A stretch of DNA of 63,751 nucleotides from Gemmatimonadota bacterium. GTDB taxonomy: Bacteria > Gemmatimonadota > Gemmatimonadetes > Longimicrobiales > Gaopeijiaceae. Numbering within the stretch: the stretch's first letter is position 1; each line of letters opens with the position of its first letter. The stretch is taken from NCBI GenBank assembly GCA_022823225.1, contig JAJDXM010000041.1:1-63751 (forward strand), written 5' to 3'. The notes below the pieces were generated by a model. It was not told the origin of the DNA. It did not search any database and worked only from the letters and a program-made list of their open reading frames with translations. Shown in pieces: positions 4,144 through 27,122 of the stretch. The position numbers were made by a program, and so were the translations under genes.

Positions 4144-6021
4144 TCAGCGTGGGAGTCCCTCGCTGACCAGGATTTTCAACTCGCCTGAGTCCATCCGAAC
4201 CCCGGGGATCGACTCTCCCGTCCAGTTGCGGAGAATCCCGCGCAGCCGACCGTTTCCGCGATCGAGGACGATCGCCATGGGACTGGACCCGAACCGCGTC
4301 AACGTCACCGTGCCCTCGGGCCCGGACAGCACCACCTCTTCCAGGGCACCGTCGCGGGCCGCGTCGTAGGGCACCGCGAAGAGGAAGGTGCCGCCCCCGG
4401 AGGCGATCGGCCGGGGCGCGAAGCTGAAATCGAAGCGACGCTCACCACCGGATCCCAACCCTTCGAGACGGTACGGGCCCTCCTTCTCGGGCAGCAACGC
4501 CGGAAGATCGACTGCGAACGCCGGGTCGAGCGCCAGTTCCCCACCCCCCGCTCTTCCCCAGAGCAGCAGATTGCCCCGGTCCGCCGCCGCGTGGCGATCG
4601 GAGCCCGAAACCAGCGGTTCCTCTTCGTGGAGACGGAAATCCATCGCAAGTGTGAAATGGTAGTCGCTCACCCAACTCGGGCTGCAGTACCCCATGAAAT
4701 CCCTGTAGATCGACGCGCTGACCAGACGCTCCGCGTGGACGTCGTAACCCCACACCCCGATGGACCCGTTCGGATAGGGAAAGGCCTGATCCGGGGCGAT
4801 CGCGCCGCCGCAGGGGGCGTGATGCAAACCCAGGTTGTGTCCGATCTCGTGGGCCAGCGTCTCGCCGTCGGCCCTGCCCACTGCGACCGGGTGGCCGATG
4901 AACCCCAGACCTCGCGGCGTGGTTTCGCCATCGAGATTCACTGCACCGTAGTAGTAGCCCCGTTCCCCTTCGGTAACCCGAAGGTACGTCAGTTCACCGA
5001 GCAGCTGCGACCATCCGGCGGCGGTACCGAGGTCGGCCGACGTCATGAATCCATCGTGGACGGTCACCGCCAGATCGCCGATCGGAAGGACCGACCGTGC
5101 GTGGCGCAACTGCGGGCTGTCGGGCGTGATCCCGTTGGTCCAATTGTAGACGTCCGCACCGTTTCCCGACGCGGTCACGATGGGAACGATCGTGAGTTCC
5201 ATGGTTGGAAGCACGCGGACATCGAGCGGCAGCCTGCCCAGCGGCGGTATCCGGCGAATGCTCGCCGGCGCCGCAGGTACACGGCGCTCGGGATCGACCT
5301 CGATGAACATCTCGGTACCCGGTTCGATGAGAGATCCCGGGACCAGCGCATCGAACGACAGATCGAGCCGGCCTTCTTCCACTTCGGCCGGCATCACTTC
5401 GAATCCCGGTTCCATCACGAACCGGCGGGCCAGCTTGTTGTTGCGGTAGAAGGACGCTTTGACCACTGGCTGAAAGTAGCTTTCGCGGTCGCCGGTCACG
5501 AACACGCGCAAGAGAGCGTCGCGCCCGGCGATGAGCGGCACGCTGCCCATGGAATTCTGCACCACTTGCGTCAAGTGGTACGAGTCGACGGTCATGGTCA
5601 CTGTTGCGGGATTCGCGCGCACGCTCGTTAGGGCACGCAGCCCCGCGAAAGTCACGACCACGTTCGTCTCGCCGAATGCAACGGCCTCCGCTCTCCCGTT
5701 TCGTGCCATGAATACGGTTTCGGAACCAAGACTGCTCCAAACGGGACGCGCCCAGGTCGGCGTGCGGTGGATCGGGTGCCCCTGTCGATCAAGAACGAGC
5801 ACCGAATAATTGGCCACCTGACCGATGGTGAGCATTGTATCCGACGGCTGGATCGCCAGCGACGCCGGAACCATGTCGGCGTCCATCGCCAGATCGTCGC
5901 AGGCAGAGACGACGGAGAGCCCGGCCAGGCTGGCGGCGAGGAACACTGCAACCCGGCCGGCCGGGGTCGGGGCCCGCTGCGGGTCCGCACAGGGCTTCAG
6001 CCACACGCGCTTGTCACCCAC
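4144..6021 (-). CDS. Lipoprotein metallopeptidase, HExxHxxGxxH (array copy 3)
   Basis: A 625-residue predicted surface or periplasmic zinc metallopeptidase. A lipoprotein signal ends in VVSAC. It is followed by a bacterial Ig-like (BIG2-type) domain at about 50-135, a conserved beta-rich domain with PLIAGRDALLRVFV, and the catalytic domain with HEIGHNLGLHH (His391, Glu392, His395, His401). A Met-turn candidate is YRDFMGYC, and a beta-sandwich tail ends LVSEGLPR. This copy keeps the metzincin Gly between the second and third His. The order resembles M66/M11-like secreted peptidases, but the exact family is unassigned. The GTG start overlaps the end of the upstream beta-barrel gene by eight bases, indicating coupled translation. 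It is the last gene of the block. Confidence 0.8.
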   Translation of the reverse strand: MGDKRVWLKPCADPQRAPTPAGRVAVFLAASLAGLSVVSACDDLAMDADMVPASLAIQPSDTMLTIGQVANYSVLVLDRQGHPIHRTPTWARPVWSSLGSETVFMARNGRAEAVAFGETNVVVTFAGLRALTSVRANPATVTMTVDSYHLTQVVQNSMGSVPLIAGRDALLRVFVTGDRESYFQPVVKASFYRNNKLARRFVMEPGFEVMPAEVEEGRLDLSFDALVPGSLIEPGTEMFIEVDPERRVPAAPASIRRIPPLGRLPLDVRVLPTMELTIVPIVTASGNGADVYNWTNGITPDSPQLRHARSVLPIGDLAVTVHDGFMTSADLGTAAGWSQLLGELTYLRVTEGERGYYYGAVNLDGETTPRGLGFIGHPVAVGRADGETLAHEIGHNLGLHHAPCGGAIAPDQAFPYPNGSIGVWGYDVHAERLVSASIYRDFMGYCSPSWVSDYHFTLAMDFRLHEEEPLVSGSDRHAAADRGNLLLWGRAGGGELALDPAFAVDLPALLPEKEGPYRLEGLGSGGERRFDFSFAPRPIASGGGTFLFAVPYDAARDGALEEVVLSGPEGTVTLTRFGSSPMAIVLDRGNGRLRGILRNWTGESIPGVRMDSGELKILVSEGLPR

Positions 6022-6598
6022 TCAACTTTATCCCGATGCCGACATGAAGCGACAGCGCGATCGCGTGGGCCGTGCTCGAAACCGTGTTCGCCGTGAGCCA
6101 CCGGTACGAAAGGCCCGGCATGAGGAAGAGGCGGCCGAACGGCACGGTCGCACCGAAGCCGAATAGCATCCCGAGCCCGGGTTCGGGATCATCGCCCTCC
6201 GTGCCCACCTCCGTCGATCCGAAGAGCACTCCGCCGCGGAGCCAGGTTTGTCCGTCCAGCCACGCCAGCTTCGGCAGCAATTCCACGCCAAGCGCCCAAT
6301 GGTTGCCCACGACGGTCAGGTCTGCGCCTGTACAGAACCCTTCCTCGCACCCAAAGGCAGTCCTCAGATACCCACCGAACGCGGACACGTTCGGGCCGAT
6401 CCGCCTCTTGAGCACGACGTCGATGGACAGTTTGGGAACCACGTCCAGTGCGGCGGCCGACCTGGAATGGCTGCCGATCGTCACGCCGGTACGCACCTCG
6501 GCCTCCACTTCACCTACCCAACCCGGCAACTGGGCCTGGGCGGAACATGGGAGCAGCGCAATGCCCGGCGCCGCTGCCAGAAGGACGCGGATGCTCAC
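6014..6598 (-). CDS. Small outer-membrane beta-barrel partner (copy 2)
   Basis: A 194-residue protein with a Sec signal (MSIRVLLAAAPGIALLPCSAQAQ) and about eight alternating amphipathic strands, as in small outer-membrane barrels. It shares a clear pattern with the barrel at 9196-9783: QLPxW, the IGSHSxSAAALDxVPK block, FGGY, AFGCEEGFC (a CX4C pair likely to form a disulfide), GNHxALG, LPGxSYRxLTAN and a closing HVGIGIKL. I chose GTG 6598 because its signal peptide then matches that of the paralogue. A longer GTG start at 6664 overlaps the upstream lipoprotein gene. The stop overlaps the start of the next metallopeptidase, so the pair is probably co-translated. Confidence 0.65.
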   Translation of the reverse strand: MSIRVLLAAAPGIALLPCSAQAQLPGWVGEVEAEVRTGVTIGSHSRSAAALDVVPKLSIDVVLKRRIGPNVSAFGGYLRTAFGCEEGFCTGADLTVVGNHWALGVELLPKLAWLDGQTWLRGGVLFGSTEVGTEGDDPEPGLGMLFGFGATVPFGRLFLMPGLSYRWLTANTVSSTAHAIALSLHVGIGIKLSG

Positions 6599-6650
6599 AG
6601 CACGTTTTTCGGACCGCGGTGACCGGCAAGCGCCACGAGGATCACGCGGG

Positions 6651-7286
6651 TCAACCCCTGTCACAGGGTTCGGCCACCGTGATGCGCGTGGTATCCGAAA
6701 GCGCGGGGATGGCGGGGGAGCCGGCGGGCGGCACCTCCAGCGACGCTGTGTGCCGGTATGTTATCCAGGTGGGGTCGCAGCCGGTTACCGTCCAGACTCC
6801 CGACCATTGGACGCCCGGGCCCTCCGCGTTCTCATGGCCGCTCAGCGACGGACAGTGGCTGAACGTGGCGTTGATCGCGCCGCCGGGCACGTACTGGACC
6901 TGCGCAGTGCAACTGAATCCGAGTCGCTGTCCGACCTCGTTTTCGATGATGACATACCCCTCGGCGACGGCCAGTGAACACGGGGGCCAGTAGTTGTGCT
7001 CTTCGTCGTCGACGGCGCATCGGATCAGATAGTGGTCGGCAAAGCTGACCCTGTGATTCCACCTGACGCCACCGGGGATTCGACCCAGCACCCCGATCAC
7101 GTCCCCCTGCTCGACCACCAGTTCGTTGGGGGTCATGCTGACCGGCCACATGGCGAACCCCAGCACAGGGTCCTCCGGCGGGGGAGGAAGCGGCGGATCG
7201 ACTTCGATACATGCGGGCAGGAAGACCAGCGGGATCATGGCGAGCGTCCGGCTCGAGCCGATGGAGAGTCGCGTAGCGTGTCTCAT
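6651..7286 (-). CDS. Lipoprotein of unknown function inside the metallopeptidase array
   Basis: A 211-residue lipoprotein. The signal ends LVFLPAC, followed by a proline-rich linker (DPPLPPPPEDP). The rest looks beta-rich with several Cys (LIRCAVDDE, WPPCSLAV, GFSCTAQ, FSHCPSL, VTGCDP, AEPCDRG), an even number that could form disulfides. No known domain recognised; an Ig-like fold is possible. It lies 42 bases after metallopeptidase copy 2 and just before barrel copy 2, where the other module has no such gene. A purine-rich GAGAAGAG precedes the ATG. Confidence 0.6.
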   Translation of the reverse strand: MRHATRLSIGSSRTLAMIPLVFLPACIEVDPPLPPPPEDPVLGFAMWPVSMTPNELVVEQGDVIGVLGRIPGGVRWNHRVSFADHYLIRCAVDDEEHNYWPPCSLAVAEGYVIIENEVGQRLGFSCTAQVQYVPGGAINATFSHCPSLSGHENAEGPGVQWSGVWTVTGCDPTWITYRHTASLEVPPAGSPAIPALSDTTRITVAEPCDRG

Positions 7287-7328
7287 GGTTCTACTCTTCT
7301 CGGGTTGAAAACAGAATGGTCAAGTTGT

Positions 7329-9161
7329 TCATCGCACAGTCCGCGGCAGCCCGTCGCTGACAAGGATTCTCGGGCCGTCACCGCCAGCCGCCGTGGCCCG
7401 GCCCTGCCAGCCGCGCACGATCGCGCTCACCTGTCCGGAATCCCGGTTGAGGATGATCGCCATCGGGCTCGTGCTGCCCGGCCCAAGCGTGGTCTCCCCC
7501 TCGGGCCCCGACAGGACCACGCGCGCCAGCACACCGTCCGTGTCCGGGTCGTAAGGCAAGTTGAAGTGGAAATTCGCGCCCCCGTGGTCTACCGGGTTCG
7601 GCGTGAAGTCGAAGCCGAACCTGAATTCGCCGTTGGGTCCGAGGCCCTCGAGCCGATACGGTCCACCCTGCGCCGGCAGTCTCGGGCTGGCCTCGATCAC
7701 AAATGCCGGTTCCAGATCGAGCTCACCGTTCAATACACCTCCCCAGAGCATGAGCGTACTTTCCACGGGCAGCGCCTGCCACAAGTCACGCGACGGCGCG
7801 CGCTCGACCGCGAGCCTGCGATTCACCGCCCTGCGAAAGCTGTAGTCGCTGACCCAGGCCGGGTCACAGTAGGACATGAGATCCTTGTACTGGCGCGGAT
7901 GAATAATCGCGCCGGCAGCGACGTCGAACCCCCAGCTGCCCAGCGTCTCCGGGTCGTGCGGGAAGTTCGCGTCCGGGTTGCCTGGGGAGCCGCAATTGAT
8001 GTGGTAGAGATTCATGTTGTGCCCCACCTCGTGCGCGTAGGTCTGGCGGGAATTGCGCCCGACGCTGACCGGCGTCCAGAGGTGGCCGAGGCCGCCGTAG
8101 CGGGTGCCCGGAGGCAGCACGCTCGCGCCATAGTAGTATCCGCGCCGGCCTTCCATGACCCAGACGGTCTCGATCTCGCGGAGCCAGAGGTTCCATCCGA
8201 CTTCGGTTCGAAGGTTCACGCTCGTCCGGTAGGGCTCGTGAATCGTCACCTCCATTTCGCCGATGGGCAGGACGGTCCGGGCGAAGCGGAAGAACACGTC
8301 GTCCTCGGTCATGCCCTCGAACCATGGCACGACCTCCTGGCTTGCCGGGAAGGAATCCTGCACGGTGGGGACGATCGTCTGTCGGTAGACGGGCATGTCC
8401 ACGACGTTCAGGGGCAGCGTCCCTTCGGCCGGCATCCTGAGCTGGCTCCCGGGAGCCAGCGGCACGACCCCATCGGGGTCGAGTTCGACCACCATATGGA
8501 GTCCCGGCTGAATCACCGAGCCGGGGACCCTCGCATTGTGCGTGAACACCAGGCGATCCTCCCTGGGTTCAGTGGGGATCCCTTCAGTCATCGGGCTGAG
8601 TGGGGTGGAGTGGACCAGCTCGCCGTCCAGGTAGAAACTCGCCCGGGCCCGCGGTTGGAAGAAGCTGGTCTCGTCACCTACGGGAAAGACCCGCAGGAAG
8701 GCGTCACGTCCAGCGATGAGCGGGACGGTGCCGTCGAGATTCTGGGCGGCCTGGGTCAGGTAGACGGCGGCGGTCGAAAGCTCGAGTTCGAGCGGATTGG
8801 CGCGCAGCCCCGCCTCGGTCTCAAGTCCTGCCAACCTGGCGATCACCCTCACCTTCCCGCCGCCAAGCACGTTGAGGGTGCCGTCGGGGTCGACCGCCAT
8901 GACGCCCCCGGGAACGACAATCCACTCGGGCAACGCCCAGCCCGGCGGCCCGGGAATCACGTTGCCGTCTTCGTCCAGAACCACCACGCTCAGACTTGCC
9001 CGGTCTCCCTCGGTCAGCAATGTGTCGGCCACCTCAAGTACCAGGGAGTGCGGAACCTTGTCCGGTGTGGTCCCCAGATCGGCGCAAGCGGCCAGGGATG
9101 CGGCGACCATGAAGGCCGCAACGCCGCAACCCACCGGTGCTGTTCTCAACATCCTTCCCAT
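7329..9161 (-). CDS. Lipoprotein metallopeptidase, HExxHxxNxxH variant (array copy 2)
   Basis: About 610 residues in the same order as the other two copies: lipoprotein signal ending SLAAC, an Ig-like domain (DTLLTEGDRASLSVVVLD), the PLIAGRDAFLRVFPVG domain, the catalytic motif HEVGHNMNLYH (His377, Glu378, His381, His387), Met-turn YKDLMSYC and a C-terminal beta-sandwich ending LVSDGLPR. Asn replaces the usual metzincin Gly. The ATG at 9161 (MGRML) is preferred; a second ATG lies nine bases on, and a longer frame to 9230 overlaps the upstream barrel. It follows barrel copy 1 by 34 bases. Substrates are unknown. Anchoring by a lipid at the outer membrane is likely. Confidence 0.78.
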   Translation of the reverse strand: MGRMLRTAPVGCGVAAFMVAASLAACADLGTTPDKVPHSLVLEVADTLLTEGDRASLSVVVLDEDGNVIPGPPGWALPEWIVVPGGVMAVDPDGTLNVLGGGKVRVIARLAGLETEAGLRANPLELELSTAAVYLTQAAQNLDGTVPLIAGRDAFLRVFPVGDETSFFQPRARASFYLDGELVHSTPLSPMTEGIPTEPREDRLVFTHNARVPGSVIQPGLHMVVELDPDGVVPLAPGSQLRMPAEGTLPLNVVDMPVYRQTIVPTVQDSFPASQEVVPWFEGMTEDDVFFRFARTVLPIGEMEVTIHEPYRTSVNLRTEVGWNLWLREIETVWVMEGRRGYYYGASVLPPGTRYGGLGHLWTPVSVGRNSRQTYAHEVGHNMNLYHINCGSPGNPDANFPHDPETLGSWGFDVAAGAIIHPRQYKDLMSYCDPAWVSDYSFRRAVNRRLAVERAPSRDLWQALPVESTLMLWGGVLNGELDLEPAFVIEASPRLPAQGGPYRLEGLGPNGEFRFGFDFTPNPVDHGGANFHFNLPYDPDTDGVLARVVLSGPEGETTLGPGSTSPMAIILNRDSGQVSAIVRGWQGRATAAGGDGPRILVSDGLPRTVR

Positions 9162-9195
9162 GTCTTCAGTGAGGCTCCTTCCCGCAACACCGCCC

Positions 9196-9783
9196 TCATC
9201 CACCACCCAGTCTGATTCCGAGACCCACATGGAAGGACAGGGCCACAGCCTCGGCCGTACTCGATTCGGTGTTGGCAGTCAGATAACGATAGGACACACC
9301 GGGCAGGACCAGCACGCGCCCCAGCGCCACCTCCACGCCGACACCTGCATCGGCACCGATTCCCGCGCTGGGAGGCTCCCCGTCCGTCCCGGCCTCGGTG
9401 GTCCCGAAGAGCAACCCTCCGCGAACCCATGGCCGGAAGAGAAGCCGCGACGGGCGGGGCATCCATTCCGCGCCGAGCGCCGCGTGGTTCCCCACGATGC
9501 TCAGGTCCCGCTTCGTGCAGAAGCCTTCCTCGCACCCGAAGGCGGTCATGTAGTAACCGCCAAATACCGACAGTGTCGGAATCAGCTCGGTCTTGACCAC
9601 GAAATCGAAGGAGGGCTTGGGAACGATGTCCAGCGCAGCGGCCGAAGCGGAGTGACTGCCGATGCTTGCCCCCGCCCGGATCTCCACCCCCGTCTGTCCC
9701 AGCCACGAGGGCAGCTGTCCAGCCGCCGGTTCATTCACGAGTGCGGCCAGTGCCAGGATTGCGAACAGCGTCCGGGGACTCAT
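9196..9783 (-). CDS. Small outer-membrane beta-barrel partner (copy 1)
   Basis: A 195-residue protein starting MSPRTLFAILALAALVNEPAAG (Sec signal), followed by amphipathic strands ending HVGLGIRLGGG. It is the clear paralogue of the barrel at 6014-6598, sharing IGSHSASAAALDIVPKPSFD, the CX4C pair in AFGCEEGFC and LPGVSYRYLTAN. Its ATG shares an ATGA overlap with the stop of metallopeptidase copy 1, which implies translational coupling and roughly matched synthesis. It could be an OmpW-like or transport barrel, but no named family can be assigned by eye. Confidence 0.68.
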   Translation of the reverse strand: MSPRTLFAILALAALVNEPAAGQLPSWLGQTGVEIRAGASIGSHSASAAALDIVPKPSFDFVVKTELIPTLSVFGGYYMTAFGCEEGFCTKRDLSIVGNHAALGAEWMPRPSRLLFRPWVRGGLLFGTTEAGTDGEPPSAGIGADAGVGVEVALGRVLVLPGVSYRYLTANTESSTAEAVALSFHVGLGIRLGGG

Positions 9784-11597
9784 CGGAGCCTCCCCGGCAG
9801 ACCGGTGCTGACCAGGATTTCGGTGTCGCCGTCCCCGACGGCTCCCACGCCCTGCCATTCTCTCAGAATCGCGCGCACCTGTCCTGAGCTCCTGTTGATG
9901 ATGATCGCCATCGGGTCGGTGCTCGACGGCCCGAGTTCGAACTCGCCTTCAGGGCCGGAAAGGACGACCCGCTCCAGCAGGCCGTCCCGCTCCAGGTCGT
10001 ACGGGATGGCGAAACTGAAATGGGCGCCGCCGTGCTCCACCGGGATGGGCGCGAAACCGAAGCTGAAGGCAAGCCGGCCACCTTCGCCGAACCCCTCCAG
10101 CCGATACGGACCGCTCTGGGCCGGCATCCGCGGTTTCCCCACGACCTGGAACGCCGGCTCCAGCAGGAGTTCTCCGTCGCCGGCGCTCCCCCAGAGAATC
10201 AGGGTGCTCTCCTCCGGCGTCGCCTCCCGGCGTGCAACCACCAGCGGGTCCTCGGTGAGAATCCTGTGCCTGAGCGCCTTGTTGAACGAGAAATCACTGA
10301 TCCAGTAGGGCCGGCAGTAGCTCATCAGATCGCTGTAGGTCCCGGGGTGCAGCATCGTTCGCCGACCCACATCGTATCCGATGATGCCGATGCTCCCATC
10401 GGAGTATGGGAAACTCGGATCCGGTCCGCCCGCACCGCCGCAAGGTGCGTGCCGAAGGCTCATGGAGTGCCCCACTTCGTGGGCAAGGGTGCGCTTGCTC
10501 GGCCACCCTACGCTGGCTGCCACCAGCGTGCCCGTGGGCGGAAGATTGCCAATGCCCACAACGCCACCGCCGTATGGCAGGGCGGCTACTCCATAGTAGT
10601 AGCCCACCTGGCCCTCGAGGTCCCACAGAAGCGTGATCTCGCGGAGCCACGCACTCCACCCGCCGCCATCGCTCCGAAGCTCGACGTTGGAATAGTAGGG
10701 CTCGTGCACGATGACCTCCATGTCCGAGACGGGCATCAACGCGCCCACGTCGGCCACTTTGTCGCTCTCGGCGGTTACGCCGCGCGTCCAGTCCAGCACC
10801 GATTCGTCAGGATGCGGATTCATGATCGTCGGAACGATGGTGAGGTAGAATACCGGCAGCTCCACGACCTCCACATCCATGGCACCCGATTCGGGAATCC
10901 TCAGAGTGCTGCCTGGAGCCGCGGGCACGACTCCGTCCGGATCCAGTTCAACGACCATCTGCAGGCCCGGACGAACGATCGATCCCGGGATGATTGTATT
11001 GAAGGAGCGGTCGAACGCGGGTTCGTTGATGTCCGTCGGGATTTCGCCAACGACGGGATCCATCCCCGCGGAGTGCACCTCTTCGCCATCCATGTAGAAG
11101 GTCGCGCGGGCGCGCGGCTCGTAGAAGCTCGTTTCGTCACCGAGCGGAAAGACGCGCAGCAATGCGGGACGCCCCGCAAGGATGGGAACGGTTCCATCCA
11201 GATTCTGCGCCGCCTGGTTGAAGTACATGGCGCCGGAGGTAAGCTGCACGTCCAGCGGATTGATCCGCAGGAACACCCTGGCCTGCAAGCCGGCGACCTG
11301 GGCTGTTACCGACGGTTTGCCGCCACCGATGGCCGTGTAGGAACCATCAGGCTTGATATCGAGGACCGGCGGTCTGACGCCCCACTCCGGCATCGCCCAG
11401 CTCGGGGGCCCGGGGATCACTTTGCCGTCGATGTCGAGCACCGTCACCGTGAAGCTGCCCTGATCGCCCTCGGTCACCAGCGTGTCGAACGGCGTAATCA
11501 CCAGGGTCTCCGGCCAGCTGTTGGCGAGGGTCATGTCCTCGCAGCCGACGCCTCCCGCTACCAGAAGCACGAGCAGCGTACCCCTCGTCACTCTCAT
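9780..11597 (-). CDS. Lipoprotein metallopeptidase, HExxHxxSxxH variant (array copy 1)
   Basis: A 605-residue first copy of the array. The ATG at 11597 has GAGGAGG five bases upstream, and the longer frame is rejected. The lipoprotein signal is MRVTRGTLLVLLVAGGVGC. An Ig-like domain with DTLVTEGDQGSFTVTVLD follows, then the PILAGRPALLRVFPLG domain and the active-site string HEVGHSMSLRH (His373, Glu374, His377, His383), where Ser replaces the metzincin Gly. YSDLMSYC is the Met-turn, and a beta-sandwich tail ends STGLPGRLR. It overlaps barrel copy 1 by ATGA and begins 29 bases after the DUF1080 gene, so it may be read from the same transcript as the sugar genes. Confidence 0.8.
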   Translation of the reverse strand: MRVTRGTLLVLLVAGGVGCEDMTLANSWPETLVITPFDTLVTEGDQGSFTVTVLDIDGKVIPGPPSWAMPEWGVRPPVLDIKPDGSYTAIGGGKPSVTAQVAGLQARVFLRINPLDVQLTSGAMYFNQAAQNLDGTVPILAGRPALLRVFPLGDETSFYEPRARATFYMDGEEVHSAGMDPVVGEIPTDINEPAFDRSFNTIIPGSIVRPGLQMVVELDPDGVVPAAPGSTLRIPESGAMDVEVVELPVFYLTIVPTIMNPHPDESVLDWTRGVTAESDKVADVGALMPVSDMEVIVHEPYYSNVELRSDGGGWSAWLREITLLWDLEGQVGYYYGVAALPYGGGVVGIGNLPPTGTLVAASVGWPSKRTLAHEVGHSMSLRHAPCGGAGGPDPSFPYSDGSIGIIGYDVGRRTMLHPGTYSDLMSYCRPYWISDFSFNKALRHRILTEDPLVVARREATPEESTLILWGSAGDGELLLEPAFQVVGKPRMPAQSGPYRLEGFGEGGRLAFSFGFAPIPVEHGGAHFSFAIPYDLERDGLLERVVLSGPEGEFELGPSSTDPMAIIINRSSGQVRAILREWQGVGAVGDGDTEILVSTGLPGRLR

Positions 11598-11626: not shown

Positions 11627-12406
11627 TCAAAAGGTCCGGATCCGGATGTTGCGGAACCAGACCGGATCCCCGTGGTCCTGAAGCCCGACGTGTCCGGCGG
11701 GTGCCATCCCGTATCCTGGCCACTCCCGAAACTTACTCGCCTCCACCATCGCTCGCCATTCGTCGGTCCACAGCTCGTAGGCCACGATGCGAGTGCCGTT
11801 CATCCAATGTTCCACCTGCGGACCCCGAGCCACAATCCGGACCTCGTTCCATTCGCCGACCGGGCGGGTGACATCCCGGGTGGGCGCGTGCAGCGCATAG
11901 TTGGACCCGGCCGACGTCACCGGCCTGCGTCCGTCGGGGTGCCCCTCGTTGTCCAGTACCTGCATTTCCGGACCCGTCCAGTAAGGTGCGACCTCGTCCT
12001 CCGTCGCGCGGTAGAAGATCCCGCTGTTCCCGCCCTCCCCGATCTTCCACTCCAATGCCAGCTCGAAGTCGGCGTACCGGTCGACCGTGATCAGGGTGCC
12101 GCCGCCGCGCCCGGGCGTGAAAACCAGCGCGCCATCTCGCACCCCCCAGCCCGCGGGGATGCCTTCCCGGCGGTATCCTCGCCATCCCGCGAGAGTGCCG
12201 TCGAAGAGCAACTTCCATCCCGCTGCCTCCTCCTCCGGCGTCAAACGATTCATCGGCTCCTGCATGGACAGGCCTCCGCTCACAGCCGCGGCCGCTACAG
12301 CCCCGGTGTCACCGTTCGAGCCCGGTCCGTCGTCGTCCTGAGCGCACCCCTGCACCGGTACCGTCAACGCCAGAGTCAAAACGGACGCCCCAATGGTCGA
12401 ACGCAT
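11627..12406 (-). CDS. DUF1080 (3-keto-disaccharide hydrolase family) lipoprotein
   Basis: A 259-residue exported protein. The signal MRSTIGASVLTLALTVPVQGC ends in a lipobox. The DUF1080/PF06439 fold follows: LTPEEEAAGWKLLFDGTLAGWRG at its start, GGGTLITVDRYADFELALEWK, NSGIFYRA, PEMQVLDN, and the closing GHVGLQDHGDPVWFRNIRI. Members of this lectin-like family hydrolyse 3-keto-glycosides or bind sugars. A GGAGACGAGG site precedes the ATG at 12406; the longer frame runs antisense to nothing useful and is not homologous. It lies 17 bases after a TIM-barrel isomerase and an oxidoreductase, which fits a 3-keto-sugar route. Confidence 0.8.
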   Translation of the reverse strand: MRSTIGASVLTLALTVPVQGCAQDDDGPGSNGDTGAVAAAAVSGGLSMQEPMNRLTPEEEAAGWKLLFDGTLAGWRGYRREGIPAGWGVRDGALVFTPGRGGGTLITVDRYADFELALEWKIGEGGNSGIFYRATEDEVAPYWTGPEMQVLDNEGHPDGRRPVTSAGSNYALHAPTRDVTRPVGEWNEVRIVARGPQVEHWMNGTRIVAYELWTDEWRAMVEASKFREWPGYGMAPAGHVGLQDHGDPVWFRNIRIRTF

Positions 12407-12423
12407 AACCTCGTCTCCAGATC

Positions 12424-13446
12424 CTATTCTCGATTTTCTCGCTTCGGCTCGGCGAACGCCGCGTCGAAAGCCGTATACGACGGCGGAAACGAAACATTGC
12501 GGACGAAGCCGCACGCTTCCGCCGCCCCGTGTTCCCGCTCCATGCCCGCGTCCTCCCACTCCACCGAAAGGGGTCCGCGGTATCCGGCCCGGTTCAGGGC
12601 GCGAATCACCGCCTCGAAGTCGACCCGCCCCCTCCCCGGCGAGCGAAAGTCCCAGAATCGGCGGGGATCCCCGAAATCGGTGTGCCCTCCGAAGACCCCG
12701 GCCGCCGCCGGCCCCTCGGACCACCAGACATCCTTCATGTGAACATGATGGATGCGCTCTGCGAATCTGTCTATGAAGCCCACGTAGTCGACGCCCTGAT
12801 AGGCCAGGTGGCTCGGATCGTAGTTGAACCCGAACGCCGGATGCGCCTCCACCGCCTCCAGCGCGCGCTGGGTCGTGGCGATGTCGAAGGCGATCTCGGT
12901 GGGGTGGACCTCCAGCGCAAAGCGGACTCCCTCCGCGCGGAACACCTCCAGCACCGGCCGCCATCGATCCGCAAAGTCGCGGAATCCGTCGTCTATCCAC
13001 GTCCGGGGGACGGGCGGGAACGAGTACTGCAGGTGCCAGATCGAGCTTCCGGTGAAGCCGTTCACCACATCGACGCCGAGAAGCGCGGCGGCCCGAGCAG
13101 TGTCCTGCATCTCGCGGGCCGCGCGGCGGCGCACGTGCTCCGGGTTCCCGTCGCCCCAGATCCGGTCAGGGAGGATCTCGCGGTGGCGCGCGTCGATCCG
13201 GTCGCACACGGCCTGGCCGGCCAGATGGTTGGAGATGGCGTAGATGCGAAGACCGTGCCGTGCCAGGAGGTCGAGGCGGCCTTGACAGTACGAGCTGTCC
13301 GCGAGCGCCGCCTGCACGTCGAAGTGATCGCCCCAGCAGGCAAGCTCCAGCCCGTCGTAGCCCCACTCGGCGGCTTTTTCCGCCAGTGTCTCCAGCGGCA
13401 TGTCCGCCCACTGGCCGGTGAAGAGGGTCACGGGCCGGTTCATCAT
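12424..13446 (-). CDS. Sugar phosphate isomerase/epimerase-like TIM barrel
   Basis: A 340-residue cytoplasmic protein of the xylose-isomerase-like TIM-barrel superfamily. Family features seen are [16 protein letters not shown] near the N-terminus, the metal-site strands [28 protein letters not shown] and [11 protein letters not shown], and [13 protein letters not shown]. His, Glu and Asp in these strands form the divalent-metal site. Relatives act on inositols, keto-sugars, or as 3-keto-glycoside eliminases. The start overlaps the stop of the upstream Gfo/Idh/MocA gene by ATGA, so the two probably work together on one sugar substrate. Confidence 0.82.
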
Positions 13447-14639
13447 CGGTCTCCGTGCATGGGCGAGCGCTCCCGCGACGTGAAGTCCGTCCAGCGTCCG
13501 CGCTCGGCCGCGTCGAGCACGCCCTGGATGAAGCGCACCCCGCGGAGCCCGTCCTTTTGGTCCGGAAAATCATCTTCCAGCGGATCGGCCGGTTTGCCCG
13601 CGATCCCGGCGCCGATCACCCGCCCGGCGCACCGGTAGATGTTCGCGAAGGCCTCGATGAAGCCTTCGGGGTGCCCGGGCGGAAGCCGGGTCGCGTGCCC
13701 CGCCGCCGCACACAGCCAGGGGCTTCCCCGCGTCAGGCGCTGCGCGGGCGAATCGGGGAAGCGCAGGTCCAGGATGTTCGGGTCCTCCTGCCTCCAGACC
13801 AGTCCGGCCCGCTCCCCATAGATCCGCAGCGTCAGCCCGTTCTCCTCGCCCGTAGACACCTGGCTGGCGCAGTACACGCCGCGTGCGCCGCCCGCGAACC
13901 GCACGAGAATGGCCGCGTCGTCCTCCATCGCCCGCTCGGGCACCAGGGTCGCGAGTTCGGCGAACACCGCCTCTATCTCCAACCCCGTCACGTAGCGCAC
14001 GAGGTTGTCGAGGTGTGAACCGATGTCCCCGACCGCCGATGACGGGCCCGCCTGCGACGGATCCTGCCGCCAGCCCGCCTGCTTGTGACCGGTCGCTTCG
14101 AGCCGGGTCCCGAGCCACCCCTGGGGATATTCGGCCACCACCTTGCGCACCGCCCCCAACCGCCCCGACCGCACCAGGTGCCGCGCTTCCTTCACCATGG
14201 GATACCCGGTGTAGTTGTGCGTCAGGGCGAAGGTGAGCCCGGTGCGCTCCACCGTGCGGCAGAGGTCTTCCGCGTCGGCCACGGTGGTGGTCATCGGCTT
14301 GTCGCAGAAGACGTGGATGCCCGCTTCCAGGAACGCGGTCGCGACCGGGTGGTGGAGGTGGTTGGGGGTGACGACGGACACCGCGTCGATGCACCGGTCC
14401 TGTCCCAGTGCGGCCTCGGCCTCGGCCATTTCCCGGAAGGTGCCGTAGACGCGCCGCGTGTCCAGTCCCAGGGCGTCTCCCTGTTCCCGCGAGCGCTCCG
14501 GTTGCGACGCGAAGGCACCCGCGACGAGTTCGAACTCGCCGTCCAGCGCCGCTGCCCTGCGGTGAATCGCGCCGACGAACGCCCCGGGACCGCCGCCCAC
14601 CATCCCGTAGCGCAGCTTCCTGCCCAGGTAGGGATTCAC
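13443..14639 (-). CDS. Gfo/Idh/MocA-family oxidoreductase
   Basis: A 398-residue NAD(P)-dependent sugar oxidoreductase. The N-terminal Rossmann fold has [16 protein letters not shown] as nucleotide loop. [14 protein letters not shown] and the catalytic-lysine string [11 protein letters not shown] follow, and the C-terminal alpha/beta domain has [16 protein letters not shown] with its conserved His. No export signal, so it acts in the cytoplasm. Members oxidise or reduce inositols and glycosides, often at C3. It sits between an MFS sugar permease and a TIM-barrel isomerase, with an ATGA overlap into the latter. The substrate cannot be read from sequence. Confidence 0.85.
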
Positions 14640-14657
14640 GCCGCGCGCCGGCCCGGT

Positions 14658-16151
14658 TCAGGACAGCCGTTCGGCACGGTACCCGCCCGCCCGCCGCTGC
14701 CGCAGGTACAGCACTCCGAAAACCACGATCAGGAACCCGCTCAGCGGAACCAGGTACCGGAAGGAGATCAGCCCTCCATGGTTCTCGGCGGGACCCAGCA
14801 GTGCCCGCGCCCGGTCCACCGCCGGCGACGCGGATCCCGATTCGATTACGCTGCGCAGGGCGTTGGCCGTCTCGACCGGAGGCAGGGCGCCCTCCGCATC
14901 GTAGGTCGCGAAGACGCCCCTCACCCGCTCCAGCGCGGCCCGGAGATCGTCCCCCTCGGGACCCGGTGTGCGGAGCGACTGCGACTCGAGCGCGCCGGCG
15001 GCGTCCGCAAGCACCACCGCAACCTGTTCTCCGTCGAGGACTTCGTGCGCGGCCCGGTCGGCGATCTCTCCCATCAGCGGTGACGTGACCAGACCGACGA
15101 CCGCCATCCCGACCGTCCCCATGAGCCCGAGCCCCAGCGCCCCGCTCTTCGGAATGCGCTCCGAAACGAAGCCGAGCATGGTGGGCCAGAAGTAGCACAC
15201 TCCGACCGCGAAGACCGTGGCCGCCGCGAAGACCGAGGTGACCGAAGCGCCGTAGCTGAGCCAGAGGAGCCCCAGGCCGGAGAGGACCGCCGAGGCAAGG
15301 AGGATGCCGGTGGGAGACAGGCGATGAACGACCGGACCTGCCCCGAGCCGCATCAGGGCCATGATCCCGTTGATATAGACCAGGACCAATATGCCCTGCA
15401 TGCCGCCCGCTTCCAGCACCGCCGGCACCCACCGGTTGGGCCCCAGTTCGAGCGAGGCCGTCATCGCCATGCACAGGAGCATGAGCAGCATCAGCGGCGT
15501 CATCAGCGTGGCGCTGAACATCTGCCCCATCGATACGCCGGAGCGGACGCCTTCCGTGACGGGAAAACGCTCCTTCAGCAGCAGAAGGCCGTACGCGGCC
15601 GTTGGAATGACGATGAGCAGGACCTTGAGCTGCCAGGAGGTGATCCCGATCTGATCCAGCCCCCAGGCCGCCAATCCGCCGAGAACGATTCCGCCGGGGA
15701 ACCAGACGTGGAACTGGTTCAGCTTGACCGTCTTGTTGCCGGGGTAGAGCGCGGCCACCAGAGGATTGCAGGCGGCCTCGACCAGTCCGTTGGCCATGGC
15801 GATGATCAGGGCGCCCGCGAAGAGCGTCCAGAATCCGGTGGCGAAGACCAGGACGAGCGCGCCCGCCAGGTGGCCGACAAACGCCATGCGCACCAGAAAT
15901 CGCATCCCCAGCGTGTCGCAGAACGGTGCAAAGAAGACCTGGGACACCGCGAATCCCCAGATCGCGGCACCACCGATCCACCCCACCTGGGCGTTGTTGA
16001 GGACGAATTCCCCCTTTAGGTCGAACATGATCGCGCCCACGGTGGCAAAGGCCACCGACGTCGCGATCAGCGCGACGCAGCTTCCCAGGAAAAGGCGTCT
16101 CGCATCCACATCGGAACGCCCGCCCGATCCGCCGTGTTTCGATTCGCTCAC
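14658..16151 (-). CDS. MFS permease, likely for sugars
   Basis: A 497-residue inner-membrane protein with about 12 hydrophobic helices typical of the major facilitator superfamily. Examples are LFLGSCVALIATSVAFATVGAI, the MGLVEAACNPLVAALYPG-like string (ANGLVEAACNPLVAALYP) seen in FucP/sugar MFS proteins, and a last helix LVPLSGFLIVVFGVLYL before a basic tail. Unusually, about 100 hydrophilic residues (roughly 362-466, starting ADRAAHEVLDGEQ) lie between the penultimate and last helices. It lies 18 bases before the oxidoreductase gene, so it probably imports that enzyme's substrate. Confidence 0.82.
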   Translation of the reverse strand: MSESKHGGSGGRSDVDARRLFLGSCVALIATSVAFATVGAIMFDLKGEFVLNNAQVGWIGGAAIWGFAVSQVFFAPFCDTLGMRFLVRMAFVGHLAGALVLVFATGFWTLFAGALIIAMANGLVEAACNPLVAALYPGNKTVKLNQFHVWFPGGIVLGGLAAWGLDQIGITSWQLKVLLIVIPTAAYGLLLLKERFPVTEGVRSGVSMGQMFSATLMTPLMLLMLLCMAMTASLELGPNRWVPAVLEAGGMQGILVLVYINGIMALMRLGAGPVVHRLSPTGILLASAVLSGLGLLWLSYGASVTSVFAAATVFAVGVCYFWPTMLGFVSERIPKSGALGLGLMGTVGMAVVGLVTSPLMGEIADRAAHEVLDGEQVAVVLADAAGALESQSLRTPGPEGDDLRAALERVRGVFATYDAEGALPPVETANALRSVIESGSASPAVDRARALLGPAENHGGLISFRYLVPLSGFLIVVFGVLYLRQRRAGGYRAERLS

Positions 16152-22519: not shown

Positions 22520-23698
22520 ATGACACGCTTCAGGAAGCGTTCCCCCCTTGGCAGCCGTCGGCCGCCCGCATGCCGGCATCCCCTCCTTTCCTGCCTGCTG
22601 CCGTGCCTGTTGCCCGCAGCGGCCTGCACCGCCGATTCCGGCGGGCCGGAAGCGGACGCCGGGACAGCGAGCGACGCCGTGCCCTCCTTCCAGGTTGACC
22701 CCTCCTGGCCCCGCGAGCTGCCCAACGACTGGATTCTCGGCTCGATCACCTCGGTGTTCGTGGATGCGCAGGATCACGTCTGGATCACGCACCTCCCGGA
22801 AACGCTCACGCCCGAGGAGATCGCCGCCGTCCAGGACCCGCCCATGGGGGAATGCTGCGTTCCCGCCCCGGTGGTGCTCGAGCTCGACCCGGAGGGGAGC
22901 GTGGTCCGGGCCTGGGGCGACCCGTCCACGCAGGATGTCTCGGAGTTCCCGCGCAATTCGCACGGCCTCTTCATCGACCACAACGGATTCGTCTGGATCG
23001 GCACCTTCCGCCACCACCGCGTCATGAAGTTCACGCGGGACGGCGAGCACCTCATGACGCTGGGCAGGTACGACGAGAACGGCGGCAGCAACGACACCGA
23101 ACTCCTGGGCGGCCCGGCAGGGATCTGGGTCAACCCCGAGACCAACGAGGTCTTCATCGCGGATGGCTATGCCAACCGGCGCGTCGTCGTCTTCGACGGA
23201 GAGACGGGCGCCTACATTCGCCATTGGGGCGCCTACGGCGAGCCTCCCGACGACGACGCCCGGTACCCCTACAACGCCCGCACGGCGGAGAGTCCGCCCC
23301 CGCCCCAGTTCGGCACGGTCCACGGCCTGGTCGGTTCCGGTGACGGCCTGCTCTACGTCGCCGACCGGCGCGGCAACCGCATTCAGGTCTTCCGGCAGGA
23401 CGGCACCTACGTGACGGAGAAGACGATCGCGCCGCTGACCCGCGCGTCGGGCTCGGCGTTCGTGGTGGCGCTGTCCCCCGACGACGAGCAGCGCTGGCTG
23501 TACCTCGCCGACGGCACCAATCACAAGGTGTGGATCCTGCGCCGTTCCGACCTGGAGGTGGTGGGCGAGTTCGGGCGCGGGGGCCGTCAGGTGGGACAGT
23601 TCATCCGTCCCCACGGGATGGACGTGGACTCGCGCGGGAACATCTATGTGGGCGAGGCGTCGACCGGGAGGCGGGTGCAGAAGTTCGTGCCCGGCTGA
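22520..23698 (+). CDS. NHL-type 6-bladed beta-propeller lipoprotein
   Basis: A 392-residue exported protein with GGAGG just before the ATG. The signal ends LLPAAAC (lipobox). The rest consists of NHL repeats: SVFVDAQDHVWITHL, GLFIDHNGFVWIGTFRHHRVMKFTRDG, IWVNPETNEVFIADGYANRRVVVFD, LLYVADRRGNRIQVFRQDG and GMDVDSRGNIYVGEASTGRRVQKF. This arrangement resembles the lyase domain of peptidyl-alpha-hydroxyglycine alpha-amidating enzymes, but an enzymatic role is not proven. A related protein lies at 40171-41295. It precedes the large VPS10-like gene in the same direction. Confidence 0.78.
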   Translation: MTRFRKRSPLGSRRPPACRHPLLSCLLPCLLPAAACTADSGGPEADAGTASDAVPSFQVDPSWPRELPNDWILGSITSVFVDAQDHVWITHLPETLTPEEIAAVQDPPMGECCVPAPVVLELDPEGSVVRAWGDPSTQDVSEFPRNSHGLFIDHNGFVWIGTFRHHRVMKFTRDGEHLMTLGRYDENGGSNDTELLGGPAGIWVNPETNEVFIADGYANRRVVVFDGETGAYIRHWGAYGEPPDDDARYPYNARTAESPPPPQFGTVHGLVGSGDGLLYVADRRGNRIQVFRQDGTYVTEKTIAPLTRASGSAFVVALSPDDEQRWLYLADGTNHKVWILRRSDLEVVGEFGRGGRQVGQFIRPHGMDVDSRGNIYVGEASTGRRVQKFVPG

Positions 23699-23912
23699 AG
23701 GCAGTCCACCAGCGGGAGCGCGGCGACGAGCATCGCAACTGCAATCGCACCACCACATCCGCGCCACACGCTTCGTGTCTTCATTGGGGACCTCCGTTCA
23801 CGACAACCGGGGCCGGGGGTGCGTCCCCCCGCGTCATCCTGACAGATTGTTCGTCACAAGCCGTTCTGGCACAAATCGTGAACTCCCGACCCCACACTTC
23901 CAGGAAGAACCC

Positions 23913-26900
23913 ATGCACCACCCACGAAGCCGATTCACCTTCCTGCTCGCAGCTGCCGCACTGGCCGCGGCCCTTTCAGCCATTGCACCGCCCCGGCTCG
24001 CGACACCATCCACCCTCGCCGCGCAATCCACCACCGCGACCAGACAACTCGACACCCTGGCCTTCAAGGACCTCCGATACCGCATGGCGGGGCCCTACCG
24101 CGGCGGCCGTTCCACCGCCGCCACCGGCTTCCTGAACGACTCCGACCGCTGGCTGATGGGCACAACCGGCGGAGGCGTCTGGGAGACGGACGACAACGGC
24201 GTCACGTGGCGCAACATCTCGGACGGCTACTTCGGGGGCTCTATCGGGGCGGTGGCGGTCGCAGCTTCGGACCCGAACGTGATCTACGTCGGTGAGGGTT
24301 CGATGGACATCCGCGGCAACACGTCCGCCGGGCGCGGCGCCTGGAAGTCCATGGACGGGGGACGCACCTGGACGTCGATCGGGCTGCCGGACGCTGGGCA
24401 GATCGGGCGCATCGAGGTGCATCCGCGCGACCACGACCTGGTCTACGTCGCGGCCCTCGGCCATCCCTTCGGGAAGAACCCGGAACGCGGGATCTTCCGT
24501 TCGCGGGACGGCGGGGAGACGTGGGACCACGTGCTGGCCCTCAACGACTCGACCGGAGCGTCCGATCTGGCCATGGACATGAACAACGCGCGTATCCTGT
24601 ATGCGGGGATGTGGCGCGGGGAACGCAAGCCGTGGGCGCTCATTTCGGGGGCCGAAGAGGGCGGCGTGTACAAGACCACCGACGGCGGCGACACCTGGAC
24701 GAAGCTGGGCGGTGGGCTGCCCGAGGGGATCGTGGGGAAGGTGGGCGTGACCATCTCTCCGGCCGACCCGGACCGGGTGTGGGCGATCATCGAGGCCGAG
24801 CCGGACGGCGGCGTCTACCGCTCGGACGACGGGGGCGCCAGCTGGACCCGTACCAACCTGGACAACAACCTGCGCCAGCGCGCGTGGTATTACACACACG
24901 TGCAGGCCGATCCCGCCGATCCCAACACGGTCTACGCCCTCAACACCAGCCTGTACCGTTCGGTGGACGGCGGAACCACTTTCGAGGTCATTCCCGTTCC
25001 CCACGGCGATGTCCACGACCTCTGGATCCATCCCGACAACCCCGACCGAATGGTAGTCGCCAACGACGGCGGCGCGCAGGTGACGGTGAACGGCGGCGAG
25101 ACCTGGTCGACCTACTTCAACCAGCCCACAGCCGAGTTCTACGATGTCATCGTCGACAACGGCTTCCCCTACCGGCTCTACGGCGCGCAGCAGGACAACA
25201 CGACGATCTCCGTGCCCGCCTGGTACGACGTCAACACCCTCTATCCCAAGCAGCACTGGCTGAACGTCGGCGGCTGCGAGACCGGGCCCATCGCGCTTGA
25301 TCCCGACCGGCCGCACATTACCTACGCGGGGTGCTACGGGGGCGTGATGGACCGCTATGACCTCGAGTCGGGGCAGCGGCGCAACATCATGCTCTACCCG
25401 CAGCTGCAGCTCGGCATGGCGGCAAGCGACCTCCGGCACCGCTTCCAGTGGGTGTCGCCGATGCTGGTCAGCGCCCACGACAACCGCGTCCTCTACCACG
25501 GGTCGCAGTATGTGAACCGGTCGCTGGACGAGGGCGCGACCTGGGAGACGATCAGCCCCGACCTGACAACCAACGACCCCGACCACCAGGAGCAATCCGG
25601 AGGGCCGATCAACGCCGACGTCACCGGCGTCGAGATCTACAACGTCGTTTTCTCGATCGCGGAATCGCCGGTCAACCCGGACGAGATCTGGGCGGGAACC
25701 GACGACGGGCGGATGCATGTGACGCTGAACCGGGGTGGCAGTTGGCGCGACGTGACGCCGCCGGAGATGCCCGAGCTGGGGACGGTGGACGAGATCGAAG
25801 TGTCGCTTCATCAGGCCGGGCGGGTGTACATCGCGGTGCAGCGGTACAGGCTGGACGACTTCAGGCCCTACATCTTCCGCACCGACGACTTCGGCGCGTC
25901 CTGGACACTCGCCACCGACGGCATCCCGGACGGCCACCCCGTGCGCACCGTGCGGGAAGACCCCGTTCGCCCGGGCCTCCTCTTCGCGGGCACCGAGTTC
26001 GGCGTCTTCGTCTCCTTTGACGCCGGCGATTCATGGCAGAGCTTCCAGCGCAATCTCCCCATCACCCCGATCACCGGGATGCGCGTCGCCCACGACGACC
26101 TGATCCTCTCGACCCAGGGACGCTCGTTCTGGATCCTGGACGACATCTCGCCGCTCCGCGAGATCCAGGAAGCCGTCGCCGCGGGCACCTTCCTGTTTGC
26201 GCCCCGCAGCGTGACCCGCTTGAGCAATCTCGGCGCGCTCGGCCTCGCCGAACTCAACCCCGACCCGGCGCCGGCCGGTGCGCAGCTCCACTACTACCTG
26301 GCCGAAGAGCCCGACGAGGACATCCGCATCGAGGTCGTGGACGGGCGCGGCGAGGTGGTTCGCGTGTTCGCGTCGGACTCGGCGGCCGCGGCGGAGGCCG
26401 ACGGGGAGCGGATCACGAAGGCGGCCGGGCTCAACCGGATCGCGTGGGCGCTATCCTACGCGGGCCCCGAGCTGCCGGAGGGAGCGGTCGTCTGGGGCTA
26501 CACGGGTGGGGTGAAGGCGCCGCCGGGCCGGTATGCCGTGCGAATGGCGGTCGGCGACACGATGCTCGAACGGGCCTTCGAACTGCTGCCCGACCCGCGT
26601 ATCCCCGAGGTCACGCCCGCCGGCTACGCGGCGCAGTTCCGCATCGCAATCCAGGCCCGCGACTCGATCAATTCGATCACGCGGGCGATCGAGGATCTCG
26701 CAGCGATCCGCGAACAGGTCGACGCCGTCATGGAGCGCGCCCGCACCGCCGAACAGGAGGCCGAACTGGAGGCGCTCGCCGACACGCTGGCGGACAGGTC
26801 CATGGCGGTCACCAACGACCTGATGCAGACCCGGAACCGCTCCAACCAGGATCCGATCCGATTCCCGCCCCGCCTCGACAACCAGTGGCTGGAACTCTAC

Positions 26901-27122
26901 GGCCGCATCACGGGCGTCGACGGCTACATATCGGGCGGGGCGGAGGGCGCTCCCCACCCGGGCACACTGGAGCGCCTGGAGGATCTCCTCACGGAGTGGG
27001 CCGCCGTGAGCGTCCGCTACATCGACCTATTGGAGAACGAACTGGTGCGCTTCAACGAGGCGGTCGAGCGGCTGGGACTGCCGGCGGTCGTGCTGCCCCG
27101 GAGGGGGCGGATCGTGAGCTGA
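23913..27122 (+). CDS. Large exported VPS10/sortilin-like beta-propeller (BNR repeats)
   Basis: 1069 residues. The Sec signal (RFTFLLAAAALAAALSAIAPP) is followed by a long run of BNR/Asp-box repeats such as SMDGGRTWTSIG, SRDGGETWDHV, TTDGGDTWTKLG, SDDGGASWTR and VNGGETWSTYF. This is the pattern of the sortilin/VPS10-like 'glycosyl hydrolase' proteins frequent in Gemmatimonadota and Acidobacteriota. A helical C-terminal region (residues about 880-1000) follows: RIAIQARDSINSITRAIEDL and EQEAELEALADTLAD. The ATG at 23913 has AGGAAG upstream; the longer frame into the previous gene is rejected. No catalytic residues are assignable, and binding of peptides or glycans is equally plausible. Confidence 0.78.
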   Translation: MHHPRSRFTFLLAAAALAAALSAIAPPRLATPSTLAAQSTTATRQLDTLAFKDLRYRMAGPYRGGRSTAATGFLNDSDRWLMGTTGGGVWETDDNGVTWRNISDGYFGGSIGAVAVAASDPNVIYVGEGSMDIRGNTSAGRGAWKSMDGGRTWTSIGLPDAGQIGRIEVHPRDHDLVYVAALGHPFGKNPERGIFRSRDGGETWDHVLALNDSTGASDLAMDMNNARILYAGMWRGERKPWALISGAEEGGVYKTTDGGDTWTKLGGGLPEGIVGKVGVTISPADPDRVWAIIEAEPDGGVYRSDDGGASWTRTNLDNNLRQRAWYYTHVQADPADPNTVYALNTSLYRSVDGGTTFEVIPVPHGDVHDLWIHPDNPDRMVVANDGGAQVTVNGGETWSTYFNQPTAEFYDVIVDNGFPYRLYGAQQDNTTISVPAWYDVNTLYPKQHWLNVGGCETGPIALDPDRPHITYAGCYGGVMDRYDLESGQRRNIMLYPQLQLGMAASDLRHRFQWVSPMLVSAHDNRVLYHGSQYVNRSLDEGATWETISPDLTTNDPDHQEQSGGPINADVTGVEIYNVVFSIAESPVNPDEIWAGTDDGRMHVTLNRGGSWRDVTPPEMPELGTVDEIEVSLHQAGRVYIAVQRYRLDDFRPYIFRTDDFGASWTLATDGIPDGHPVRTVREDPVRPGLLFAGTEFGVFVSFDAGDSWQSFQRNLPITPITGMRVAHDDLILSTQGRSFWILDDISPLREIQEAVAAGTFLFAPRSVTRLSNLGALGLAELNPDPAPAGAQLHYYLAEEPDEDIRIEVVDGRGEVVRVFASDSAAAAEADGERITKAAGLNRIAWALSYAGPELPEGAVVWGYTGGVKAPPGRYAVRMAVGDTMLERAFELLPDPRIPEVTPAGYAAQFRIAIQARDSINSITRAIEDLAAIREQVDAVMERARTAEQEAELEALADTLADRSMAVTNDLMQTRNRSNQDPIRFPPRLDNQWLELYGRITGVDGYISGGAEGAPHPGTLERLEDLLTEWAAVSVRYIDLLENELVRFNEAVERLGLPAVVLPRRGRIVS

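What the first reader, a model, noticed from the sequence alone, without database searches (positions are those of the whole stretch)
4144..11597. Amplified, translationally coupled metallopeptidase plus outer-membrane barrel array
Three paralogous lipoprotein zinc-peptidases of about 605-625 residues alternate with two paralogous small beta-barrels that share an unusual IGSHSxSAAALD block and a CX4C pair. Junctions are 4-8 base overlaps at copy 1 to barrel 1 and barrel 2 to copy 3, so barrel and peptidase are made together. An extra Cys-rich lipoprotein is inserted in the second module. Peptidases are common, but a repeated peptidase/barrel module suggests a defined surface system, in which the barrel presents or secretes the enzyme or takes up the product. 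I know of no described system with this layout.
Basis: partly seen in the sequence, partly recalled or inferred. Interest (0 to 1): 0.75.

Follow-up and report, generated by a model that had tools for sequence, protein, structure and literature searches.

The report
Surface metallopeptidase paired with dedicated barrel
Many Gemmatimonadota bacteria, several of them apparently sponge-associated, make a lipid-anchored zinc peptidase together with its own small outer-membrane barrel from two slightly overlapping genes; the pair stays together in unrelated genome neighbourhoods and the barrel's outward-facing loops are unusually conserved, so the two probably work as one machine on the cell surface.

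Summary
On the minus strand the array runs peptidase P3, barrel 2, peptidase P2, lipoprotein, barrel 1, peptidase P1. The peptidases are M66/StcE-like metzincin lipoproteins; the barrels are 8-stranded, OmpA/NspA-like. The repeated array is not the basic unit: it is a lineage-specific tandem duplication. The conserved unit is two genes, an upstream ('U') peptidase followed by a barrel. Of 56 barrels of this clade, 52 lie beside an intact peptidase; of the other four, two start at a contig edge, one follows a truncated peptidase and one looks decayed. 41 of 44 U-to-barrel junctions overlap by NTGA. The pair persists in 11 unrelated flanking contexts, with congruent trees. The IGSHSxSAAALD and CX4C blocks lie in extracellular loops 1 and 2; in paired barrels the extracellular loops are as conserved as the strands, in free barrels of the same superfamily they are not. 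The inserted Cys-rich lipoprotein is not part of the module. Best reading: the barrel is the peptidase's dedicated surface docking partner. A functional pair is well supported; docking is inferred, and no complex could be predicted here. Export or product uptake through so narrow a barrel is unlikely. The papers searched do not describe the pair.

The parts
9780..11597 (-). P3: upstream-type (U) M66-like lipoprotein peptidase, 605 aa, HEVGHSMSLRH, Met-turn DLMSYC
9196..9783 (-). Barrel 2: signal peptide plus 8-stranded outer-membrane barrel, 195 aa
9780..9783 (-). ATGA stop/start overlap joining P3 to barrel 2, the junction type kept in 41 of 44 U-to-barrel pairs
9628..9663 (-). Barrel 2 IGSHSASAAALD block: end of strand 1 and extracellular loop 1
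9517..9534 (-). Barrel 2 CEEGFC (CX4C) in extracellular loop 2; both Cys invariant in paired barrels
7329..9152 (-). P2: second U-type peptidase, 607 aa, HEVGHNMNLYH, DLMSYC (alternative ATG at 9161)
6651..7286 (-). Cys-containing lipoprotein, 211 aa; insertion at this locus, not a conserved part of the module
6014..6598 (-). Barrel 1: paralogue of barrel 2 (GTG start, tentative)
6443..6478 (-). Barrel 1 IGSHSRSAAALD block, loop 1
6332..6349 (-). Barrel 1 CEEGFC, loop 2
6014..6021 (-). GTGGGTGA overlap joining barrel 1 to P1; sister loci L039, L040, L041 and L057 also have a GTG 8 bases from the barrel's end
4144..6021 (-). P1: downstream-type (D) M66-like lipoprotein peptidase, up to 625 aa, HEIGHNLGLHH, DFMGYC

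Best explanation
This is a two-gene surface peptidase module. A lipid-anchored M66/StcE-like metzincin (U) and a dedicated 8-stranded outer-membrane barrel are translated together through a 4-base stop/start overlap. The barrel sits in the outer membrane, and its conserved extracellular face (loop 1 GSHSxSAAALD, and loop 2, where the CX4C pair probably forms a disulfide) is the docking site that holds the peptidase's ectodomain at the cell surface, where it cleaves extracellular protein, probably glycoprotein of the host or surrounding matrix. In the window's genus a second, distinct peptidase (D) lies just behind the barrel. In the window's own small lineage the U-barrel unit was duplicated, giving U-barrel-U-barrel-D. 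Shown: the pairing, its persistence, the predicted folds, the duplication history and the loop conservation. Inferred: a physical complex, the surface position of the peptidase, and the substrate class.
For: 52 of 56 clade barrels lie next to an intact peptidase and 41 of 44 U-to-barrel junctions are NTGA overlaps. The pair is kept in 11 flanking contexts that share no neighbouring genes within 5 kb. U and barrel trees agree: Mantel 0.87-0.88, 18 of 40 bipartitions shared against 0.2 expected. Extracellular loops of paired barrels score 2.64 bits against 2.61 for strands; free barrels score 1.38 against 2.57; this holds at equal mean identity of 34%, bootstrap interval 0.84-1.37. Barrel model pLDDT 84, Z 17.6-17.9 to OmpA and NspA. 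Peptidase model pLDDT 85; StcE is the top Foldseek hit and the catalytic domain matches metzincins at Z 14.4.
Against: No complex model was possible. Comparison of U with barrel-less peptidases shows no clear interface. Some barrels have lost the U peptidase: 8 have only a downstream peptidase, and in one complete genome U is cut to its last 83 residues beside an intact barrel. Big-type peptidases without any barrel are common (45 in the set). Surface location is not shown: P1 has Asp at +2 after the lipid Cys, an inner-membrane retention signal in E. coli (PMC7857515), though other U and D copies mostly do not. Substrate class rests on fold resemblance.
Confidence: 0.5

Rival explanations
1. 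Adhesin plus enzyme without a complex: the barrel's conserved loops bind an external ligand (a glycan or matrix protein), as Ail, NspA and Opa-type barrels do, and the co-expressed peptidase cleaves the same target.
For: Nearest structural matches include NspA, Ail and Opa barrels; conserved loops would equally fit a fixed ligand; barrel-less paralogues scanned here carry leucine-rich repeats, another recognition module.
Against: Host-exposed adhesin loops are usually variable (general knowledge), whereas these hold across genera and families; strict order and NTGA overlap favour a tighter link.
Confidence: 0.25
2. The barrel carries the lipoprotein to the surface, by threading (RcsF-OmpA type) or as a miniature translocon.
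For: Upstream lipoprotein and barrel are co-translated; Slam genes often adjoin their lipoprotein substrates and RcsF-OmpA shows a lipoprotein can travel with a barrel (PMC7857515).
Against: Eight strands and OmpA size leave no room for a folded 600-residue protein; no Slam-type TPR domain; paralogues with a similar lipoprotein start exist without a barrel.
Confidence: 0.12
3. Envelope-internal role: the peptidase faces the periplasm and serves outer-membrane upkeep, the barrel being its substrate or anchor from below.
For: P1 has Asp at +2 after the lipid Cys, an inner-membrane retention signal in E. coli.
Against: The conserved part of the barrel is the extracellular face, while the long periplasmic turn is its least conserved segment; the peptidase resembles secreted peptidases; +2 is not Asp in most copies.
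Confidence: 0.08
4. The barrel imports peptides released by the peptidase.
For: Some small barrels (OmpW type) are thought to move small molecules, and OmpW is among the matches.
Against: OmpA-size 8-stranded barrels generally lack a peptide-wide pore (general knowledge); the closest matches are OmpA and NspA.
Confidence: 0.03

Closest known systems
StcE-type M66 peptidases
   Same: Metzincin fold, Pfam M66 match for P1 and P2, Ig-like and beta-sandwich accessory domains; StcE is the top Foldseek match
   Different: StcE is secreted by the type II system (PMC7542363); these are lipoproteins encoded with a barrel partner
CpaA/CpaB of Acinetobacter
   Same: Metzincin glycoprotease with a dedicated adjacent partner that covers the active site (PMC7542363)
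   Different: CpaB is a membrane-tethered periplasmic chaperone, not a barrel, and CpaA is secreted; the NCBIfam CpaA model is far below cut-off
Slam (SlipAM) with surface lipoproteins
   Same: Outer-membrane barrel encoded beside a lipoprotein
   Different: Slam has a 14-stranded barrel and TPRs (PMC7857515); this barrel has 8 strands and no TPR; 21 of 23 genomes of the genus have no Slam match
RcsF-OmpA
   Same: Lipoprotein associated with an 8-stranded barrel
   Different: There the barrel is a generalist with other roles (general knowledge); here it is a dedicated, co-translated neighbour of a large enzyme
OMP_b-brl (PF13505) barrels of Gemmatimonadota
   Same: Same superfamily and size; picked up by the same profile
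   Different: Free barrels have PTGDF-type variable loop 1, mostly lack the CX4C pair, and have no peptidase neighbour

Membership tests
Peptidase M66 (PF10462) | Pfam gathering score (20.6 bits) | tested here: inconclusive
   P1 33.4 and P2 29.0 bits pass; P3 18.7 bits falls below
Peptidase M66 (PF10462) | HExxHxxGxxH plus Met-turn | tested here: inconclusive
   P1 complete; P2 and P3 have N and S for the Gly; Met-turn in all three
Peptidase M66 (PF10462) | Cleavage of O-glycosylated proteins | not testable with these tools
   needs an enzyme assay
Metzincins | Metzincin catalytic fold | tested here: met
   Z 14.4 to ADAM-8 over 174 residues of the predicted model; StcE first by Foldseek
OmpA/OmpX-type small barrels | Eight-stranded transmembrane barrel | tested here: met
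   AF2 pLDDT 84, eight strands, Z 17.6-17.9 to OmpA and NspA
OMP_b-brl (PF13505) | Pfam gathering score (28.7 bits) | tested here: not met
   Barrel 2 14.5 bits, barrel 1 no match
Slam (PF04575) | 14-stranded barrel with TPR domain | tested here: not met
   195 residues, eight strands, no Pfam match
CpaA/CpaB | NCBIfam metallo_CpaA cut-off (750 bits) | tested here: not met
   P1 9.3 bits
Autotransporter (type V, NalP-like) | Passenger and barrel in one polypeptide | tested here: not met
   Peptidase and barrel are separate genes with a stop between them
RcsF-OmpA type complex | Lipoprotein segment threaded through the barrel lumen | not testable with these tools
   needs a complex structure or crosslinking

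The most novel reading that the evidence does not exclude
The barrel is a surface latch for its own protease. Loop 1 carries [ST]-x-[ST] in 48 of 54 paired barrels (read from the alignment), the same pattern as the StcE (M66) recognition site S/T*-X-S/T listed in PMC7542363. The loop could dock in the active cleft as a pseudo-substrate, keeping the enzyme closed until a glycoprotein displaces it, much as the CpaB tail covers the CpaA active site.
Probability: 0.1. Interest if true: 0.8.

Novelty: new variant of a known kind. Interest (0 to 1): 0.55.

Why it matters
If the barrel is a dedicated docking partner, this is a simple way to build a surface-anchored protease in a widespread, hardly cultured phylum with sponge-associated members: one lipoprotein, one small barrel, one overlapping transcript. 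It would show an OmpA-type barrel specialised for a single enzyme, and give a testable model for how Gemmatimonadota act on host or matrix glycoproteins. Free and paired barrels of one superfamily also form a natural comparison in which loop conservation separates solitary from partnered barrels.

Tried and rejected
Array as the basic unit: rejected; P2 and P3 are both U-type and P1 is D-type, so the window array is a duplicated U-barrel unit in front of D, and four sister loci have barrel-U-barrel-D. Lipoprotein as a third component: rejected; strong homologues in only 4 of 58 other genomes searched, on contigs other than the module's. Slam-dependent export: not supported as a general route, since only 2 of 23 genus genomes match. 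Synteny hitch-hiking as the reason for pairing: rejected by the 11 unrelated contexts. Peptidase columns that set U apart from the barrel-less clade: only scattered sites, no interface. PDB sequence searches found no close solved relative of either protein. The OX638356 record is not in the annotated collections. The Palauibacterales paper has no mention of peptidases or outer-membrane proteins in its main text. Four further literature searches gave no description of the pair, but the library is open-access only. Distribution outside the phylum was probed only by a pattern scan of genome contigs, whose 16 hits all carry Gemmatimonadota titles.

Full report
Observation. The six ORFs lie on the minus strand and, in transcription order, read P3 (11597-9780), barrel 2 (9783-9196), P2 (9152-7329), a lipoprotein (7286-6651), barrel 1 (6598-6014), P1 (6021-4144). 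P2 and P3 are 44% and 42% identical to P1 and the barrels 53% to each other, far beyond chance. Only P1 has the complete zinc motif; P2 and P3 vary at the glycine.

What the proteins are. P1 and P2 pass the Pfam cut-off for Peptidase_M66 and P3 falls just below. The AlphaFold model of P1 (pLDDT 85) has a Big_2-type Ig domain right behind the lipid anchor, a second Ig-like domain, a metzincin domain (263-468; best Z 14.4 to ADAM-8) and a C-terminal beta-rich domain. StcE is the first Foldseek match. The barrel model (pLDDT 84) has eight strands and matches OmpA and NspA at Z 17.6-17.9, in the same N-to-C register as OmpA, which puts the IGSHSxSAAALD block at the end of strand 1 and in extracellular loop 1, and the CX4C pair in extracellular loop 2.

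Distribution. In a sample of 395 Gemmatimonadota genomes 49 have a barrel of this clade. Record titles of related loci name Gemmatimonadota and Longimicrobiales MAGs; a sponge origin for many of them is inferred, not tested. Peptidase-profile matches are far more widespread: 87 of 98 relatives have one.

The unit. Across the window and the fetched loci 56 barrels of the clade were scored: 25 have only an upstream peptidase, 19 have one on each side, 8 only a downstream one, and 4 none. Of those four, two begin at a contig edge (L074, L075), one follows a U peptidase cut to its last 83 residues (L065) and one appears decayed, lacking a signal peptide and a normal last strand (L125). 41 of 44 U-to-barrel junctions are NTGA overlaps. 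None of the free barrels examined in the wider superfamily has a peptidase neighbour. Flank comparison found 11 contexts that share no neighbouring genes at the threshold used, so synteny does not explain the pairing. The trees of U and barrel are congruent (Mantel 0.87-0.88).

History of the array. In the peptidase tree P1 belongs to a separate clade (23 rows, 17 directly behind a barrel and 6 not, SH-aLRT 99), found in the window's genus and two related genera. P2 and P3 fall with the upstream peptidases; P2 groups with the middle peptidases of four sister loci that read barrel-U-barrel-D. The window array is therefore a tandem duplication of the U-barrel unit in front of D. The lipoprotein between P2 and barrel 1 has strong homologues in only four other genomes of the genus, on contigs other than the module's.

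Evidence for docking. In paired barrels the extracellular loops are as conserved as the strands (2.64 and 2.61 bits), while in 19 free barrels the loops score 1.38 and the strands 2.57. The contrast survives reduction to subsets with equal mean identity of 34% and has a bootstrap interval of 0.84-1.37 bits. Exposed loops of solitary barrels normally vary, so conservation on the outer face points to a fixed partner. The co-encoded peptidase is the obvious candidate, but a fixed external ligand is not excluded.

Paralogues as a contrast. The window's genome has seven further members without a barrel, about 1100-1565 residues long; the two scanned with Pfam carry leucine-rich repeats in front of the peptidase. 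A separate clade of Big-type peptidases also lacks barrels and occurs in tandem arrays (L093, L094, L155). So the enzyme family combines with different recognition or anchoring parts, and the barrel is one of them.

Limits. No complex could be folded, localisation is inferred, sequence comparison gave no docking surface on the peptidase, and the literature library is open-access only. The closest described arrangements are CpaA/CpaB, Slam and RcsF-OmpA; membership in Slam and CpaA/CpaB was tested and not met, and RcsF-type threading could not be tested.

Noticed in passing
G000:C83:707-1552 and 8843-9667: Two SlipAM (Slam) homologues in the window's genome; only 2 of 23 genomes of the genus have any match, so they may be horizontally acquired or on a foreign contig.
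   Followed up: no
L139 3941-7009; L140 4271-7819; also G000 contigs C61, C87, C71, C29, C46: Seven long M66-like paralogues without a barrel; the two scanned with Pfam carry leucine-rich repeats in front of the peptidase domain.
   Followed up: partly
window 11627-16151: MFS transporter, Gfo/Idh oxidoreductase, sugar isomerase-like protein and 3-keto-disaccharide hydrolase directly upstream of the array; the upstream flank is syntenic across the genus and two related genera.
   Followed up: partly
L065 7277-8409: In a complete genome of the genus (G022) the U peptidase is reduced to its C-terminal 83 residues while the barrel behind it is intact; its D-type peptidase lies over 100 kb away.
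   Followed up: partly
L093, L094, L155: Tandem arrays of three or more Big-type M66-like peptidases without any barrel.
   Followed up: partly
L079, L084, L086, L088: Tandem pairs or triples of free barrels of the same superfamily with no peptidase nearby.
   Followed up: no
window 23646-27122 +: 1158-residue protein with Sortilin/Vps10 and BNR-type propeller repeats.
   Followed up: no
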